DNA of 64,000 nt from positions 93,313 through 157,312 of the forward strand of contig JAUIJL010000005.1 of the NCBI GenBank assembly GCA_030431255.1, in the 5' to 3' direction. This stretch comes from Thermoanaerobaculia bacterium (GTDB lineage Bacteria > Acidobacteriota > Thermoanaerobaculia > Multivoradales > J023). Of this stretch, positions 58,696 through 63,469 are shown piece by piece (the stretch's first letter is position 1; the number at the start of each line of letters is the position of its first letter). The notes below the pieces were generated by a model. The model was not told the DNA's origin and did no database searches. It saw only the letters and a program-made list of their open reading frames with translations. A program made the position numbers and the translations under genes.

Positions 58696-58858
58696 TCCGC
58701 AACAGCTTCCATCTCCGGGAGGATGCCGAGATGGTCGGCCATGTGTTTTCGGCCGAGATCGCGGAAAATTGTGCTCGATGTCGCGCTACCTATTGAGCTA
58801 AGTCTCACTTTCAAAACTCTGATCTTCTTAACCCCCAGGCTCCTTGAGGAATCTAACC

Positions 58859-60187
58859 ATGGGCATTGTGCCGTCTTTGGTCGACCGTCTATCCCCCGCT
58901 CCACGCGTTTGCCTCTTCTTGGCCTTCTTCACCTTTGTCCTCTGCACTGCCGGCGCCGCCTCTGCCGTCGATCCCGCTTCCCAAGAACGGGTTTGGATCA
59001 CCGTCGGTGCGGACGCTTTTGAGATGCTTCAGCATGCGGACGAGATCCAGCTCGACGCACAACCGCTGCGCGCCTATCAGGAACAAGACGAGGTGGTGAT
59101 CACCCAGGTCAGCGCCCTAGACCTGCAGAGCATTTCAGGTTTGATCCACAAGTATTTCGAGCGCTGCAGCGGCTTTATGGTCCATCCCGACCTGGACCAC
59201 GCGGTCGAAACCCTGAATCGTCAACACGCCCAGCGGGGCGCTACGATCGAATACCTCCTCGATCAACAGACCGCCATGGCCGCTCTGCAACCCAGGCTAC
59301 AGGCCGAAAACATCCGCGAAACCATCGAGCGGCTGTCCACCGACTTCAACAATCGCTACTACGGTCACCCGTCCGGCCAAGCCGCCGCGGAGTGGATTCG
59401 CGACCTCTGGCAAGGCTATGCCGCCGGCCGTGAGCATGCGACGGTGGAGCTGGTGCAGCACGCTTGGACTCAGCCCTCTGTGATCCTGACGATTGAAGGT
59501 AGCCACTACCCCAATGAATTCGTGGTGCTCGGCGGTCATCTAGATTCCATCTCCTCGGGCTCCGGCAACCCGGATTTCTTAGCCCCCGGCGCGGACGACA
59601 ACGCATCCGGCATCGCCACCCTCAGCGAGGTGGCCAGGGTGATGCTGACCCAGAATTTCAGGCCCAAACGCACGGTGCAATTCATGGGATATGCCGCTGA
59701 AGAGGTCGGTCTTCTGGGCTCCCGTGACATCGCGGCCGAGTATGAGGCCGCCGGCACCGAGGTGGTCGCCGTGCTGCAGCTCGACATGACCGCATTCAAC
59801 GGCTCCGCGGAAGACATCGCCCTGCTTTCGGACTTCACGAATTCCACCCTCACCTCGTTCGTGGGCCAATTGGTGGACACCTACCAGCCCGAGCTGATGA
59901 GAACCAGCACCGCCTGCGGCTACGGCTGCTCCGATCACGCGTCGTGGCATCGGGAAGGCTACCCTGCCGCCATGGCCTTCGAGGCTCGTTTCGGCCAGCA
60001 CAACTCCTCCATTCACAGCACCGGAGATACTCTGGCAACCCTCGGCAACAGCGGTGACCACGCCCTCAAATTCGCCCGATTGGGCCTGGCTTTCGCCGTG
60101 GAGATCAGCACCGACGAGCTCGGCGAGGTGTTCTTCAACGGCTTCGAAAGCGGCGACCTCACCGCTTGGAGCGTCGTCGAGCCATGA
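58859..60187 (+). CDS. Secreted M28-family zinc aminopeptidase with a C-terminal DGFESGD-type tag
   Basis: The start at ATG 58859 (GAGGA upstream) gives 442 residues. A signal peptide spans about residues 1-36 (FLAFFTFVLCTAGAASA). The two-zinc site is complete: His/Asp in VVLGGHLDSIS, Asp in GADDNASGIATL, Glu-Glu in AAEEVGLLGS, Asp in LQLDMTAFNG, and His in SDHASWHREGYP. This matches leucine-type aminopeptidases of family M28. The C-terminus ends FFNGFESGDLTAWSVVEP, shared with two neighbouring proteins. The stop overlaps the start of the next gene (ATGA). Confidence 0.92.
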   Translation: MGIVPSLVDRLSPAPRVCLFLAFFTFVLCTAGAASAVDPASQERVWITVGADAFEMLQHADEIQLDAQPLRAYQEQDEVVITQVSALDLQSISGLIHKYFERCSGFMVHPDLDHAVETLNRQHAQRGATIEYLLDQQTAMAALQPRLQAENIRETIERLSTDFNNRYYGHPSGQAAAEWIRDLWQGYAAGREHATVELVQHAWTQPSVILTIEGSHYPNEFVVLGGHLDSISSGSGNPDFLAPGADDNASGIATLSEVARVMLTQNFRPKRTVQFMGYAAEEVGLLGSRDIAAEYEAAGTEVVAVLQLDMTAFNGSAEDIALLSDFTNSTLTSFVGQLVDTYQPELMRTSTACGYGCSDHASWHREGYPAAMAFEARFGQHNSSIHSTGDTLATLGNSGDHALKFARLGLAFAVEISTDELGEVFFNGFESGDLTAWSVVEP

Positions 60188-61887
60188 GCTGCCGGCAATC
60201 CCTCCGAACCGTCACCCTCGGCCTGGGATGGATCGCCCTGCTCACCGCCGGCTCCGCGGGAGCGCAGCTGCAGCCTCCTCAGGATCCGGTAGGAAATCCG
60301 ACCACGCCGAGCAAGGCCTCTCTGGGTAAGGTGCTTTTTTGGGATGAGCAGCTTTCTTCTACCCGGACCGTGGCCTGCGGCACTTGTCACATCCCACGGG
60401 ACGGTGGCGGCGACCCAAGATCCGCCGCGAATCCCGGTGCCGTGCATCCCGGGCTCGACGGTGTCTTCGGAGGGCCCGACGACATTTTCGGATCCCCTGG
60501 AGTGCCCGCCAGCAGGACCGACGGCACCTACATCCTCGACAGCACGTTCGGGCTGGCTCCCCAGGTGACCGGTCGCCGGACCTCCTCATCGATCAACGCC
60601 GGTTACTCTCCCACCTTATTCTGGGACGGCCGGGCCGCCGGCGAATTCGTCGATCCGGTCACCGACCAAGTGGTCCTCGCCTCCGGAGCGGCCCTGGAAT
60701 CCCAAGCCTTGGGCCCCCTGGTCAATGACGTGGAGATGGCCCATGAAGGCCGGACGTGGCCCGAGGTGCTGGCCAGAATCACCGCTTCAGAGCCTCTCGC
60801 CCTGGCTTCGGACGCACCCCAGGCGCTATTGGATTGGATCGATGGGCGGAGCTACGAGCAGCTCTTCACCGATGCCTTCGGCACCCCCGGCATCACCGCC
60901 CCGAGGATCGGCATGGCGATCGCCGCCTATGAGCGCACCCAATTCACCAACCAGGCTCCCTTCGATACTTTTCTCGCCACCGGCAGCGGTCTGACGCCCC
61001 TGGAGCAACAGGGACGCTCGGTCTTCGTAGCTTCCAGCTGCGACCGTTGCCACAGCCTGGACATCACCTCCGACCACGACTTCCATTTCACCGGCGTCCG
61101 TCCGCAAGCGGACGATGCGGGACGTTTCGACGTCACCATGGTGGAAGAGGACCGGGGCAAAATGCGGACCCCGAGCCTGCGCAATGTGGAGCTACGGCCG
61201 CCCTTCATGCGCAACGGTAGATTCGCCTCTCTGGAAGCGGTAGTGGACTTCTACGACCGCGGCGGTGACTTCGACGCTCCCAACAAGGATCCTTTGGTGC
61301 GAGAGCTGAATCTCACTCCCACGGAGCGGAACGCCCTGCTCGCGTTTCTCAGGCGTCCATTGACCGACCCCCGACTGCGGGACGGCCTGGCTCCCTTCGA
61401 CCGTCCTGGGCTTTATTCGGAGTCGAGCCGGGTTCCCGTGGTCGGCGGCACGGGCGTGCCCACCGCGGAGGGACCGACACCGAGAATCGTGGCGCTCGAG
61501 CCACCTCTCTTGGGCAATCCCGGATTCACCGTCGCTCTCTTCGACGCCGGAGCAGGAGGCACCCAGGCGACCCTGGCCATCGATTTCCAGGACCCCGGGC
61601 TCACCCAACCGGGCTCCGCGGCGTTCGCCCTCGAAACCGTAAGCCTCGAGGTGGCCAAAAGCGGTGATCGCTTCGCCTCCGTCAGCCTGGCGATTCCCAA
61701 TGACGACACTTGGTTGGGACGCCCCCTCTTCGGCCGCTGGTATATCCCCGGCGCCGGCAGCGGAGCCGGCACCGCGGTTTCGAATCTGGTGACCTTCCGG
61801 ATCTTCAGCTCCTTGCAGAACGGGGCCCTTTTCCTCGACGGATTCGAGTCCAGTGACCTATCGAGGTGGACCTCGGTCTCACCTTAG
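60184..61887 (+). CDS. Di-haem cytochrome c peroxidase/MauG-like exported protein
   Basis: The start at ATG 60184 overlaps the M28 stop by 4 bases and gives 567 residues. A signal peptide covers about residues 1-28 (LGWIALLTAGSAGAQ). Two c-type haem sites are visible, CGTCH near residue 65 and CDRCH near 285. The region MRTPSLRNVELRPPFMRNGR is typical of cytochrome c peroxidases. The last 130 residues form an added beta domain, and the chain ends FLDGFESSDLSRWTSVSP. It may reduce peroxide or carry out another oxidation outside the cytoplasm. Confidence 0.9.
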   Translation: MSCRQSLRTVTLGLGWIALLTAGSAGAQLQPPQDPVGNPTTPSKASLGKVLFWDEQLSSTRTVACGTCHIPRDGGGDPRSAANPGAVHPGLDGVFGGPDDIFGSPGVPASRTDGTYILDSTFGLAPQVTGRRTSSSINAGYSPTLFWDGRAAGEFVDPVTDQVVLASGAALESQALGPLVNDVEMAHEGRTWPEVLARITASEPLALASDAPQALLDWIDGRSYEQLFTDAFGTPGITAPRIGMAIAAYERTQFTNQAPFDTFLATGSGLTPLEQQGRSVFVASSCDRCHSLDITSDHDFHFTGVRPQADDAGRFDVTMVEEDRGKMRTPSLRNVELRPPFMRNGRFASLEAVVDFYDRGGDFDAPNKDPLVRELNLTPTERNALLAFLRRPLTDPRLRDGLAPFDRPGLYSESSRVPVVGGTGVPTAEGPTPRIVALEPPLLGNPGFTVALFDAGAGGTQATLAIDFQDPGLTQPGSAAFALETVSLEVAKSGDRFASVSLAIPNDDTWLGRPLFGRWYIPGAGSGAGTAVSNLVTFRIFSSLQNGALFLDGFESSDLSRWTSVSP

Positions 61888-61934
61888 TCGGCCGACCGCC
61901 TAACGCCTACCGGCTACCGCCTGAATAGAGTCAG

Positions 61935-61963
61935 GCTCGGTGCTGCCGCGCGCAGCACCGAGC
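61935..61963. terminator. Hairpin after the cytochrome c peroxidase gene
   Basis: GCTCGGTGCTG (61935-61945) pairs perfectly with CAGCACCGAGC (61953-61963), with a 7-base loop. It lies about 50 bases after the stop and has no T tract, so it may end transcription together with Rho or stabilise the 3' end. Confidence 0.6.
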
Positions 61964-62086
61964 GCGCGCGGCTCCAAAGCCAAGGCGGGGAACACAAGCG
62001 AAATACAGGTGAAGACCCCAGGCGGAGAGCCGCACCCGAGCCTTTTGTAGATGACGTCCTTTGAACCCCCTTCTCAAGGAAACGAC

Positions 62087-63469
62087 ATGACTCACTATCG
62101 TGCTTCTTGCCCAACACCGCTTCGATGCTTCTGTGCGCTTTTGCTCAGCCTGTGCCTGGCCTCGCCGGGCATGGCGCAGACCGTGGAGTGGCTCTCCTTC
62201 ATCGACGTCACCGACACCAAGCTGTCGGCAGACTCCTCCCTCGGCAGCAACGACACCGTGGAAAAAGACCTGATTGCAGGCGATATGGACAAGGACGGTG
62301 ACACGGACCTGCTGATCGTGCGGAAAGTCCGATTCTCCAACGCAGGCGGCCTGAGAAACGTGCTGTTGATGAACGAAAACGGCGTGCTGACCGACCGCAC
62401 GGCCACCCTCGCCCCCGACATGCTCGATCAAACCGACGACCGGGACGTGGTGTTGGTGGATCTGAACGGAGATACCTGGCCCGACCTGGTGACCGCCACC
62501 ACGTTCACCGAGCAGCCCAGGATCTATATGAATTTGGGCGAGAACGGCTCCGGAACCTGGCTCGGCTTCGACTATGACCCGAAAGAGGGGCGTTTGCCGA
62601 CCTTCTCTCCGGGTCCGAAGTTCTGCGCGTTGGCGGCGGGAGACGTCACCGGCGACGACCGTCCCGACATCTATTTCGTCGACTATGACAACAACTTAGA
62701 AGACCGGTTGCTGATCAACAACGGCAATGGATTCTTCACCGATGAAACCACCTCGCGCATGACGCTTGCCATGTACGAGTCGGTCTTCGGCACGGACGCG
62801 GCGATCGTCGACATCGACGGCGACGACGACTTGGACATCATCAAGAACAACGCGAGCGGCTCCAGCCCGCCACCGGACGCCAGCGAGCCGGCCGTGAGGA
62901 TTTTCTACAACGACGGCTCGGGCAACTTCACCTTCATGCAGCTCGCCTACACCGTCGCTCCGTACATGATCGAGGTCGCGGATTTCGACCAGAACGGCCG
63001 CCAGGACATCTACGTGGTGGACGATGCCCAAGACGCGATCTTGTTCAACACCGGCAATGACGGCCAAGGGCATGCGCAATTCAACGCCGTCGCCCCCTCC
63101 AACAGCCCGGCCACCAACTTTTTCGGCGGCAACACCAAGGTCGGAGACCTCGACGGGGACGGGATCCTCGAAATCTTGGTCGCCGATGTCGACACCGACA
63201 TCGAAGGCTGCAATCGCAAAATGACGATCCTGAGAGGCACGGGCACACCGCCGAACATCACCTACTCCGATCCGCTCACCGGCGGAACCCGCAATTACAC
63301 CACCTCCGGCACCTTCGATGTGGAGGTCCTGGATTGGAACGGCGACGGTCAGCTCGACATTTTCGCCGCCACCTGCACCGGAAACGTGATGCTCGAAAAC
63401 GTCAGCCCCATGTTTTTCGACGGCTTCGAGTCCGGCGACACGTCAGATTGGTCGTCGACCACACCTTGA
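62087..63469 (+). CDS. Secreted VCBS/FG-GAP repeat protein with a C-terminal DGFESGD-type tag
   Basis: The start at ATG 62087 (AAGGAAAC upstream) gives 460 residues. A signal peptide covers residues 1-27 (FCALLLSLCLASPGMAQ). At least seven Asp-rich calcium-loop motifs follow, as in DMDKDGDTDLL, DLNGDTWPD, DVTGDDRPDIY, DIDGDDDLDII, DFDQNGRQDIY, DLDGDGILEIL and DWNGDGQLDIF. They are typical of beta-propeller VCBS repeats that fold with bound calcium. The end FFDGFESGDTSDWSSTTP matches the two preceding proteins. A surface or adhesive role is likely but not shown. Confidence 0.88.
   Translation: MTHYRASCPTPLRCFCALLLSLCLASPGMAQTVEWLSFIDVTDTKLSADSSLGSNDTVEKDLIAGDMDKDGDTDLLIVRKVRFSNAGGLRNVLLMNENGVLTDRTATLAPDMLDQTDDRDVVLVDLNGDTWPDLVTATTFTEQPRIYMNLGENGSGTWLGFDYDPKEGRLPTFSPGPKFCALAAGDVTGDDRPDIYFVDYDNNLEDRLLINNGNGFFTDETTSRMTLAMYESVFGTDAAIVDIDGDDDLDIIKNNASGSSPPPDASEPAVRIFYNDGSGNFTFMQLAYTVAPYMIEVADFDQNGRQDIYVVDDAQDAILFNTGNDGQGHAQFNAVAPSNSPATNFFGGNTKVGDLDGDGILEILVADVDTDIEGCNRKMTILRGTGTPPNITYSDPLTGGTRNYTTSGTFDVEVLDWNGDGQLDIFAATCTGNVMLENVSPMFFDGFESGDTSDWSSTTP

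What the first reader, a model, noticed from the sequence alone, without database searches (positions are those of the whole stretch)
58859..63469. Shared C-terminal tag FFDGFESGDxSxW on three unrelated exported proteins
The M28 peptidase, the di-haem peroxidase-like protein and the VCBS protein end in FFNGFESGDLTAWSVVEP, FLDGFESSDLSRWTSVSP and FFDGFESGDTSDWSSTTP. The folds are unrelated, yet the last 18 residues match and all stop after Pro. There is no membrane helix or basic tail as in PEP-CTERM or LPXTG tags. It could be a sorting or surface-attachment signal that is recognised by an unidentified machine.
Basis: partly seen in the sequence, partly recalled or inferred. Interest (0 to 1): 0.65.

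Follow-up and report, generated by a model that had tools for sequence, protein, structure and literature searches.

The report
Detached beta-strand as export tag
In one order of Acidobacteriota, many unrelated exported proteins (around a hundred in this genome) end in the same short peptide, which is the first strand of a known type of protein domain; a small exported protein that is this domain without that strand occurs in most of the same genomes, which suggests that the peptide plugs into it and so holds the proteins at the cell surface.

Summary
In the window's genome (10.2 Mb, inferred Acidobacteriota) the tag profile matches at least 150 times; of 100 core-motif places read, 78 lie within 15 aa of a stop, 36 of them exactly 9. 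Carriers are mostly Sec-exported and otherwise unrelated; codon use shows selection on the peptide, not copied DNA.

The tag is strand 1 of a LamG/CBM-like jelly-roll domain: a profile of complete domains hits 56 of 67 tagged C-termini, through its first columns. A separate small secreted protein family is that domain without strand 1, with a signal peptide instead (profile-profile E 1e-39, starting at column 26). I found it in 30 of 34 tag-bearing and 0 of 6 tag-free genomes of the order. In five genera an 'acceptor' gene lies directly downstream of a tag-ending gene, and in four genomes the acceptor carries SLH surface-anchoring domains.

Best explanation: strand complementation in trans, a natural tag/catcher pair that holds exported proteins at the surface or in the matrix. 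Binding is inferred, not shown; four tag-bearing genomes lack a recognised acceptor.

The parts
58844..60187 (+). cargo 1: exported M28-family peptidase (TTG start shown; an ATG lies at 58859)
   Evidence: ORF; Peptidase_M28 E 1.2e-37; signal peptide by home-made rule
60131..60184 (+). tag FFNGFESGDLTAWSVVEP at the C-terminus of cargo 1
   Evidence: profile match E 1.5e-8 at G000:C50:153440-153496
60166..61887 (+). cargo 2: exported di-haem (MauG-like) peroxidase; TTG start shown, a later ATG at 60184 overlaps the stop of cargo 1
   Evidence: ORF; CCP_MauG E 3.2e-36; AlphaFold model with unfolded tail 553-573
61831..61884 (+). tag FLDGFESSDLSRWTSVSP at the C-terminus of cargo 2
   Evidence: profile match E 5.2e-8 at G000:C50:155140-155196; four Acidobacteriota relatives end in the same tag
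62051..63469 (+). cargo 3: exported FG-GAP/VCBS repeat protein (probable ATG at 62087)
   Evidence: ORF; FG-GAP_3 E 2.4e-27; signal peptide by home-made rule
63413..63466 (+). tag FFDGFESGDTSDWSSTTP at the C-terminus of cargo 3
   Evidence: profile match E 2.2e-8 at G000:C50:156722-156778. The proposed acceptor is outside the window (G000:C20:64333-64992, minus strand)

Best explanation
The tag is a detached beta-strand that works as a docking signal. Shown by sequence: [ILV]-F-x-D-G-F-E-[ST]-G-D-x-[ST]-x-W is homologous to strand 1 of a jelly-roll (LamG/CBM-like) domain; the rest of that domain exists as a separate secreted protein (the 'acceptor': signal peptide + domain without strand 1); in the window's genome one lies at G000:C20:64333-64992, minus strand. 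Tag and acceptor tend to be present and absent together, form adjacent gene pairs in five genera, and some acceptors carry SLH anchoring domains. Inferred: cargo and acceptor are exported through Sec and then across the outer membrane by an unidentified route; outside, the free tail of the cargo adds itself as the missing strand to the acceptor's sheet (strand complementation in trans), perhaps with a structural metal site shared between the tag's Glu and the acceptor's invariant Asp; the acceptor then holds the cargo at the cell surface (SLH) or in the polysaccharide matrix.
For: Tag = strand 1: the complete-domain profile A12 hits 56 of 67 tagged proteins, all 56 through its first columns (start 2-6) at the protein's C-terminus, 0 of 67 shuffled. 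Acceptor = domain minus strand 1: hhalign 100%, E 1.2e-39, complete-domain columns 26-204 on acceptor 24-208; 35 of 37 candidates read have a signal peptide by the home-made rule and none of the 35 a strand-1 motif in its first 90 aa. Free tail: residues 553-573 of the window's peroxidase have pLDDT below 50, the body mostly above 80. Co-occurrence: 30 of 34 tag-bearing against 0 of 6 tag-free genomes (p 5.5e-5). Adjacency: 10 of 36 acceptors have a tag-ending ORF stopping within 200 nt upstream. SLH domains on 4 acceptors, E 7.8e-17 to 4.7e-12. Peptide-level selection: 65 of 65 tags differ in DNA.
Against: Four tag-bearing genomes lack a recognised acceptor: G028 (37 profile tags), G037 (11 strict tags), G034, and G029 (a body next to a tag gene, but no signal peptide found). 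G004 has an acceptor but only 2 tags. Five of the six tag-free genomes are one genus, so there are about two independent absences, and there the whole jelly-roll family is missing. Adjacency could be a relic of gene fission, and outside the low-tag genomes only G015 shows it. No outer-membrane route or anchor for acceptors without SLH is known. The acceptor profile A11 does not itself contain a place for the tag.
Confidence: 0.6

Rival explanations
1. Classical sorting signal: the tag is read by an unidentified outer-membrane export or processing machine (T9SS-, T2SS- or sortase-like), perhaps cut off or joined to an anchor; the jelly-roll family is only its evolutionary source.
For: Position at the C-terminus, signal peptides and the use of the same slot for a FlgD_ig tail in Eisenbacteria relatives fit an export signal.
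Against: T9SS tail model over cut-off in 0 of 40 genomes; secretin matches in 40 of 40 genomes, tag-free ones included; tags inside RHS proteins fit cleavage poorly; it does not explain the strand-deficient acceptor next to tag genes. No search for sortase, rhomboid, exosortase or CPBP families across genomes was made.
Confidence: 0.2
2. The tag binds matrix polysaccharide or another ligand directly, as a minimal lectin-like strand, and needs no protein partner.
For: Net negative last 22 residues in 67 of 67; several acceptor loci lie among genes that look like polysaccharide and sulfatase genes (by eye).
Against: A single strand out of its domain has no known sugar-binding face (general knowledge); pairing of tag and acceptor genes is better explained by direct contact.
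Confidence: 0.08
3. Relic or structural cap: the tags are remnants of lost C-terminal jelly-roll domains, or cap the C-terminus of the carrier, with no partner.
For: Homology to the domain start; in G000 one carrier (L051) looks like a relative of proteins that in G029 and G034 still have the domain (by eye).
Against: Conservation of F, G, F, E, G, D and W over about a hundred unrelated carriers with free codon choice; one modal end, 9 aa after the core; an acceptor-profile search of 1.2 kb downstream of 67 tagged genes found no remnant (the domain profile gave one weak match, E 8e-4, downstream of L076); the tail is not packed on the one carrier modelled.
Confidence: 0.12

Closest known systems
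Dockerin-cohesin anchoring (cellulosomes)
   Same: Works like it: a C-terminal module shared by many unrelated secreted proteins docks to a receptor domain, which in some cases sits on an SLH-bearing anchor (here SLH on 4 acceptors; cellulosome side from listings and recall).
   Different: A 13-18 aa strand instead of a folded calcium-binding dockerin; the receptor is the domain from which the strand was split. No dockerin match in the three window proteins and no cohesin match in 8 acceptors.
Donor-strand complementation/exchange (chaperone-usher pili; TasA fibres, PMC9674648, abstract read)
   Same: A strand of one protein completes the sheet of another.
   Different: There it builds fibres from like subunits; here it would join one small acceptor to many unrelated cargos. 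Only one G016 protein (acceptor ending in the tag) could chain.
SpyTag/SpyCatcher (recalled)
   Same: A beta-strand split from a domain, used as a peptide tag for the remaining part.
   Different: Engineered and covalent; here natural, and no conserved Lys is seen in the acceptor alignment, so probably not covalent.
MYXO-CTERM, PEP-CTERM, GlyGly-CTERM
   Same: Short C-terminal tag on dozens of unrelated exported proteins in one lineage.
   Different: Those have a transmembrane helix and a basic end read by a membrane protease (MYXO-CTERM: abstract of PMC11980579); this tag has neither.
T9SS C-terminal domains
   Same: C-terminal export/attachment module on unrelated proteins; a FlgD_ig tail occupies the same slot in Eisenbacteria relatives of the peroxidase.
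   Different: CTDs are folded domains of about 70-100 aa (size recalled); Por_Secre_tail is over its cut-off in 0 of 40 genomes of this order.

Membership tests
MYXO-CTERM / PEP-CTERM / GlyGly-CTERM tags | C-terminal transmembrane helix | tested here: not met
   1 of 67 has a helix-like stretch in its last 45 aa, upstream of the tag
MYXO-CTERM / PEP-CTERM / GlyGly-CTERM tags | basic residues at the very end | tested here: not met
   2 of 67 have two or more K/R in the last 8; 67 of 67 net negative over the last 22
MYXO-CTERM | invariant Cys in the signature (abstract of PMC11980579) | tested here: not met
   Cys in the last 24 aa in 11 of 67
MYXO-CTERM / PEP-CTERM / GlyGly-CTERM tags | cognate processing protease in the genome | not tested
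   no search for exosortase, rhombosortase or myxosortase was made
LPXTG sortase substrates | LPXTG-like motif | tested here: not met
   0 of 67 with LPxTG/LPxTA in the last 60 aa
T9SS cargo | type-A C-terminal domain (Por_Secre_tail) | tested here: not met
   0 of 40 genomes over cut-off, 1 weak match below it
T9SS cargo | T9SS translocon and PorU-like enzyme | not tested
   no search made
Dockerin-cohesin | dockerin domain on the cargo | tested here: not met
   none up to E 1 in the three window proteins; for the 62 cargos only 25 of 70 families are shown, none a dockerin
Dockerin-cohesin | cohesin domain on the receptor | tested here: not met
   no cohesin match up to E 1 in 8 acceptors
Dockerin-cohesin | receptor can be held by SLH domains | tested here: met
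   SLH on 4 of 8 acceptors scanned: G011, G032, G033, G036
Donor-strand complementation systems | receptor fold lacks one strand that the partner supplies | tested here: met
   by sequence only: domain columns 1-25 missing in the acceptor family, and the tag matches those columns
Donor-strand complementation systems | physical insertion of the strand | not testable with these tools
LamG/CBM-like jelly-roll (concanavalin-like) superfamily | sequence match to a curated family | tested here: inconclusive
   CBM_4_9 E 0.017 over the start of one complete domain, Polysacc_lyase E 0.0042 on one acceptor, all below cut-off; half of one model resembles glucanase, pentraxin, galectin and LG folds with low TM-scores

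The most novel reading that the evidence does not exclude
A natural, genome-wide tag/catcher protein-sorting system: one beta-strand, split off a jelly-roll domain, has been put on the end (or into a loop) of about a hundred unrelated exported proteins in a genome, and one or a few small secreted acceptors, in some lineages fused to SLH anchors, capture them by strand complementation.
Probability: 0.55. Interest if true: 0.92.

Novelty: categorically new. Interest (0 to 1): 0.86.

Why it matters
It would be a protein-sorting principle in which no enzyme reads the tag: the tag is the missing structural piece of its receptor. It gives a cheap, concrete binding test for a lineage with hardly any genetics, would explain how these Acidobacteriota keep dozens of hydrolases, oxidases and RHS-repeat proteins at the surface or in the matrix, and offers a natural tag/catcher pair for biotechnology. 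The three window tails have no Pfam or NCBIfam match, and the acceptor jelly-roll has none in 25 members by NCBIfam and none above cut-off in 8 by Pfam, so annotation pipelines would miss the system.

Tried and rejected
DNA repeat or mobile element: rejected; 65 different DNA versions of 65 tags, codon diversity within the resampled range in 9 of 12 columns; three columns (variable Ala1, second Phe, Ser6) are somewhat less diverse than expected.

Common descent of the carriers: rejected; 67 tagged proteins fall in 48 blastp groups, 40 of them with a single tagged member, the largest with 11. Five proteins over 1100 aa were left out of the Pfam scan: 62 of 67 scanned, 70 families, the commonest in 6 members.

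T9SS, T2SS, type IV pilus as the machine: Por_Secre_tail over cut-off in 0 of 40. The gspD model rings in 40 of 40. I first took the stronger secretin match, missing from the tag-free genus f4 g7, for T2SS; its neighbours look like PilM-N-O-P-Q, and a cluster with pseudopilin- and GspF-like genes stands in tag-free G009 as well as in G000 (by eye). The missing PilQ in g7 is left unexplained.

Recurrent neighbour of tagged genes in G000: only kinase-, regulator- and sigma-like groups recur (by eye).

Frameshift as the source of the split in G029: my first reading; put aside when other pairs proved to have signal peptides on both halves. G029 itself may still be a broken domain.

Other bacteria: I recalled similar C-termini in Gammaproteobacteria; the long pattern gave 0 of 321 genomes in the class of G282 (genome of L155, Candidatus Rariloculus; its class is recalled, not told by the tool). 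Shorter forms were not tested there.

Papers: none of 5.39 million held papers contains DGFESGD, FADGFES, FDGFESG or DGFESG, none holds both 'C-terminal motif' and DGFES; the listings show nothing on this tag. Only open-licence PMC papers are searched. Abstract and outline read: PMC11980579, PMC9674648. All others seen only as listings.

AlphaFold of the complete domain (3 sequences) failed over the tag half (pLDDT about 23-32 in residues 1-110). PDB by acceptor profile: one incredible match, E 0.55. Plasmids: no match to the acceptor.
Full report
CHECK. The three window proteins end as described and belong to unrelated families. The core D-G-F-E-[S/T]-G-D has 111 DNA matches in the 10.2 Mb genome and none for the reversed pattern. 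I read 100 of the 111: 78 lie within 15 aa of the stop, 6 at 16-40 aa, 16 deeper. In the 78, residues that the pattern did not fix are constant: F at core-2 and W at core+10 in 78/78; 36 end exactly 9 aa after the core. A profile made from 40 tags matches at least 150 times in this genome (150 of 434 candidates scored, all matched), 105 times in G038 and 37 in G028, at E up to 1; these counts include places inside proteins. In three other families of the order, 23 of 23 sampled tags (8 in G007, 8 in G012, 7 in G038) end within 9 aa after the 9-residue motif.

CARRIERS. 65 of 67 tagged proteins have a signal peptide by a simple hydrophobicity rule, against 161 of 355 other ORFs with the same rule; the rule is permissive, so only the contrast counts. 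Sixty-two of the 67, aligned, share little but the tag and match 70 Pfam families (25 shown: BNR, M36, M28, M12, M14, NHL, FG-GAP, GSDH, beta-helix, MauG and others), the commonest in 6 members. All 65 tags examined differ in DNA, with codon use close to that of the genome: selection acts on the peptide. In the AlphaFold model of the window's peroxidase (32 sequences) the body is mostly confident, while the last 21 residues (and the signal peptide) are below pLDDT 50: a free tail.

A NATURAL EXPERIMENT. Of 52 loci with relatives of the peroxidase, I read the ends of 36 (16 not read). Four end in the tag, all titled Acidobacteriota, Acidobacteria or Thermoanaerobaculia; 15 stop within 8 aa of the end of the shared part, without tag; two Eisenbacteria carry a FlgD_ig tail (above cut-off); five others (L129, L138, L140, L147, L160) have tails that look dockerin-like to the eye, but no Pfam dockerin model matched. 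One Acidobacteriota relative (L160) has no tag. The slot is thus used for C-terminal modules in several phyla.

DISTRIBUTION. Of 40 genomes of the order, the own one included, 32 carry the core, up to 111 copies. In a phylum sample of 247 only 8 match a longer pattern: four in the order with 28-124 matches and four elsewhere with one each. In the class of G282 0 of 321 match.

WHAT THE TAG IS. In genomes with few tags (G029, G034, G016) the motif also begins C-terminal domains of 190-265 aa; in one, Pfam's CBM_4_9 touches exactly this start, below cut-off (E 0.017). Complete domains occur in tag-rich genomes too, as in G010 'VDGFESGDLSGWD...'. A profile of six complete domains (A12) hits 56 of 67 tagged proteins, each time through its first columns at the protein's end, and 0 of 67 shuffled sequences. 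It also hits 13 of 355 ORFs counted as untagged; of the 12 shown, seven are known carriers of the motif outside my 24-aa limit and three more match at their very C-terminus. So the tag is strand 1 of a jelly-roll by homology.

THE PARTNER. Searching the domain body without strand 1 (A8, 12 genomes) led to small secreted proteins that begin with strand 2 after a signal peptide. A profile of four of them (A9) matches in 32 of 40 genomes, complete domains included. I read 37 candidates that looked stand-alone: 35, in 30 genomes, have a signal peptide, and none of the 35 a strand-1 motif in its first 90 aa; two (G029, G034) have no recognisable signal peptide. Twenty-seven of the 30 genomes gave one, G003 and G018 two, G016 four; not every match was read. 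Profile-profile comparison aligns domain columns 26-204 with acceptor 24-208 at E 1.2e-39: the acceptor is the domain minus strand 1. In the window's genome it is at G000:C20:64333-64992(-), MLKRSLIAFTAFALVAGSAFGATSLSVTADAAMAG...YLDEFASFRTLAAP. Its jelly-roll has no NCBIfam match (25 members) and no Pfam match above cut-off (8 members).

CO-OCCURRENCE. Counting a genome as tag-bearing if the strict pattern or the profile finds at least one tag: 30 of 34 have a stand-alone acceptor, 0 of 6 tag-free ones do (p 5.5e-5). Exceptions: G028, G037, G029, G034. Five of the six tag-free genomes are one genus (f4 g7), the sixth is G026 (f6 g17), so there are about two independent absences; both families contain tag-bearing genomes with an acceptor (G038; G011, G019, G032). 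G024, G030 and G035 were tested for tags by patterns only.

ADJACENCY. Among 36 acceptor loci, 10 have a tag-ending ORF that stops within 200 nt upstream on the same strand (G011, G015, three in G016, G019, G029, G032, G033, G036); an eleventh regex match (G018) is not tag-like. For acceptors in genomes with up to 11 strict tags it is 9 of 12 (the other three: G004, G022, and the G016 protein that itself ends in the tag), against 4 of 174 ORFs in the 20 loci, which were fetched because they hold tags (p 2.5e-10). The threshold was chosen after seeing the data; one search had used 9 of 11, with G022 left out. Over all acceptors it is 10 of 36 against 4 of 174 (p 4e-6), but untagged ORFs in the tag-centred loci of tag-rich G000 give 27 of 338. 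G011, G019 and G032 are one genus, G033 and G036 another, so the independent cases are five genera. In G019 the profile finds one tag at E up to 0.1 in the whole genome; it lies in this gene group, with a second, variant tag between it and the acceptor. Acceptors of G011, G032, G033 and G036 end in SLH domains.

MECHANISM. Shown by sequence: homology of tag and missing strand, separate export signals, co-occurrence, pairing of genes, SLH fusion. Inferred: binding by strand complementation, surface or matrix retention, a shared metal site (the Glu is invariant in the six complete domains, the Asp of the last strand in the 25 acceptors; the metal idea rests on recalled CBM structures). Twelve RHS proteins carry the tag in an internal loop; in the ten scanned it lies at the start of, or up to about 200 aa before, the Rhs core domain. 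This fits a strand that can be offered from a loop in proteins whose C-terminal part varies, and fits C-terminal cleavage poorly. One protein of G016 is an acceptor that itself ends in the tag, so it could chain or close on itself.

NOT SETTLED. The route across the outer membrane, the anchoring of acceptors without SLH (several lie in loci that look like polysaccharide or sulfatase regions, by eye), the four exceptions, and binding itself.

VERDICT. A real, large, lineage-restricted C-terminal tag; most likely a natural tag/catcher system built from a split jelly-roll domain. I rate it categorically new as a sorting system, although each principle (docking tags, donor strands, SLH anchoring) is known.

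Noticed in passing
L301:5638-7110, L304, L307, L312, L315 (acceptor neighbourhoods): Many sulfatase-like and other genes end in a shared C-terminus L-[RK]-[AS]-L-G-Y-[LVI]: a second candidate C-terminal signature in this lineage.
   Followed up: no
L034, L044, L046, L058, L069, L073, L085, L099, L100, L102, L103 (G000): RHS-repeat proteins, several at contig ends, carry the tag in an internal loop at or before the Rhs core.
   Followed up: partly
L267:808-2343 (minus), G016:C35: A 512-aa protein is a strand-1-less jelly roll with signal peptide that ends in the tag IFTDGFESGDVSAWSGAVP; it could chain head to tail or close on itself.
   Followed up: partly
G019, G032, G033, G036 (L318, L331, L323, L330): Tags next to these acceptors have the variant G-F-E-[GS]-G-x-x-P-G-x-W; three of these four acceptors have SLH domains (the G019 contig ends before that part), which hints at matched tag/acceptor types.
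   Followed up: no
L084:9126-10913 (minus), G000:C44: One protein carries the tag directly after its signal peptide, followed by other jelly-roll-like domains.
   Followed up: no
G009, G017, G024, G030, G035 (f4 g7): The tag-free genus lacks the stronger secretin match, whose neighbours in G000, G038 and G007 look like type IV pilus PilM-Q.
   Followed up: partly
L212, L213, L214, L215 (G177, G047, G055, G204): Single tag copies in four genomes outside the order, three of them read at C-termini; transfer or contamination not resolved.
   Followed up: no
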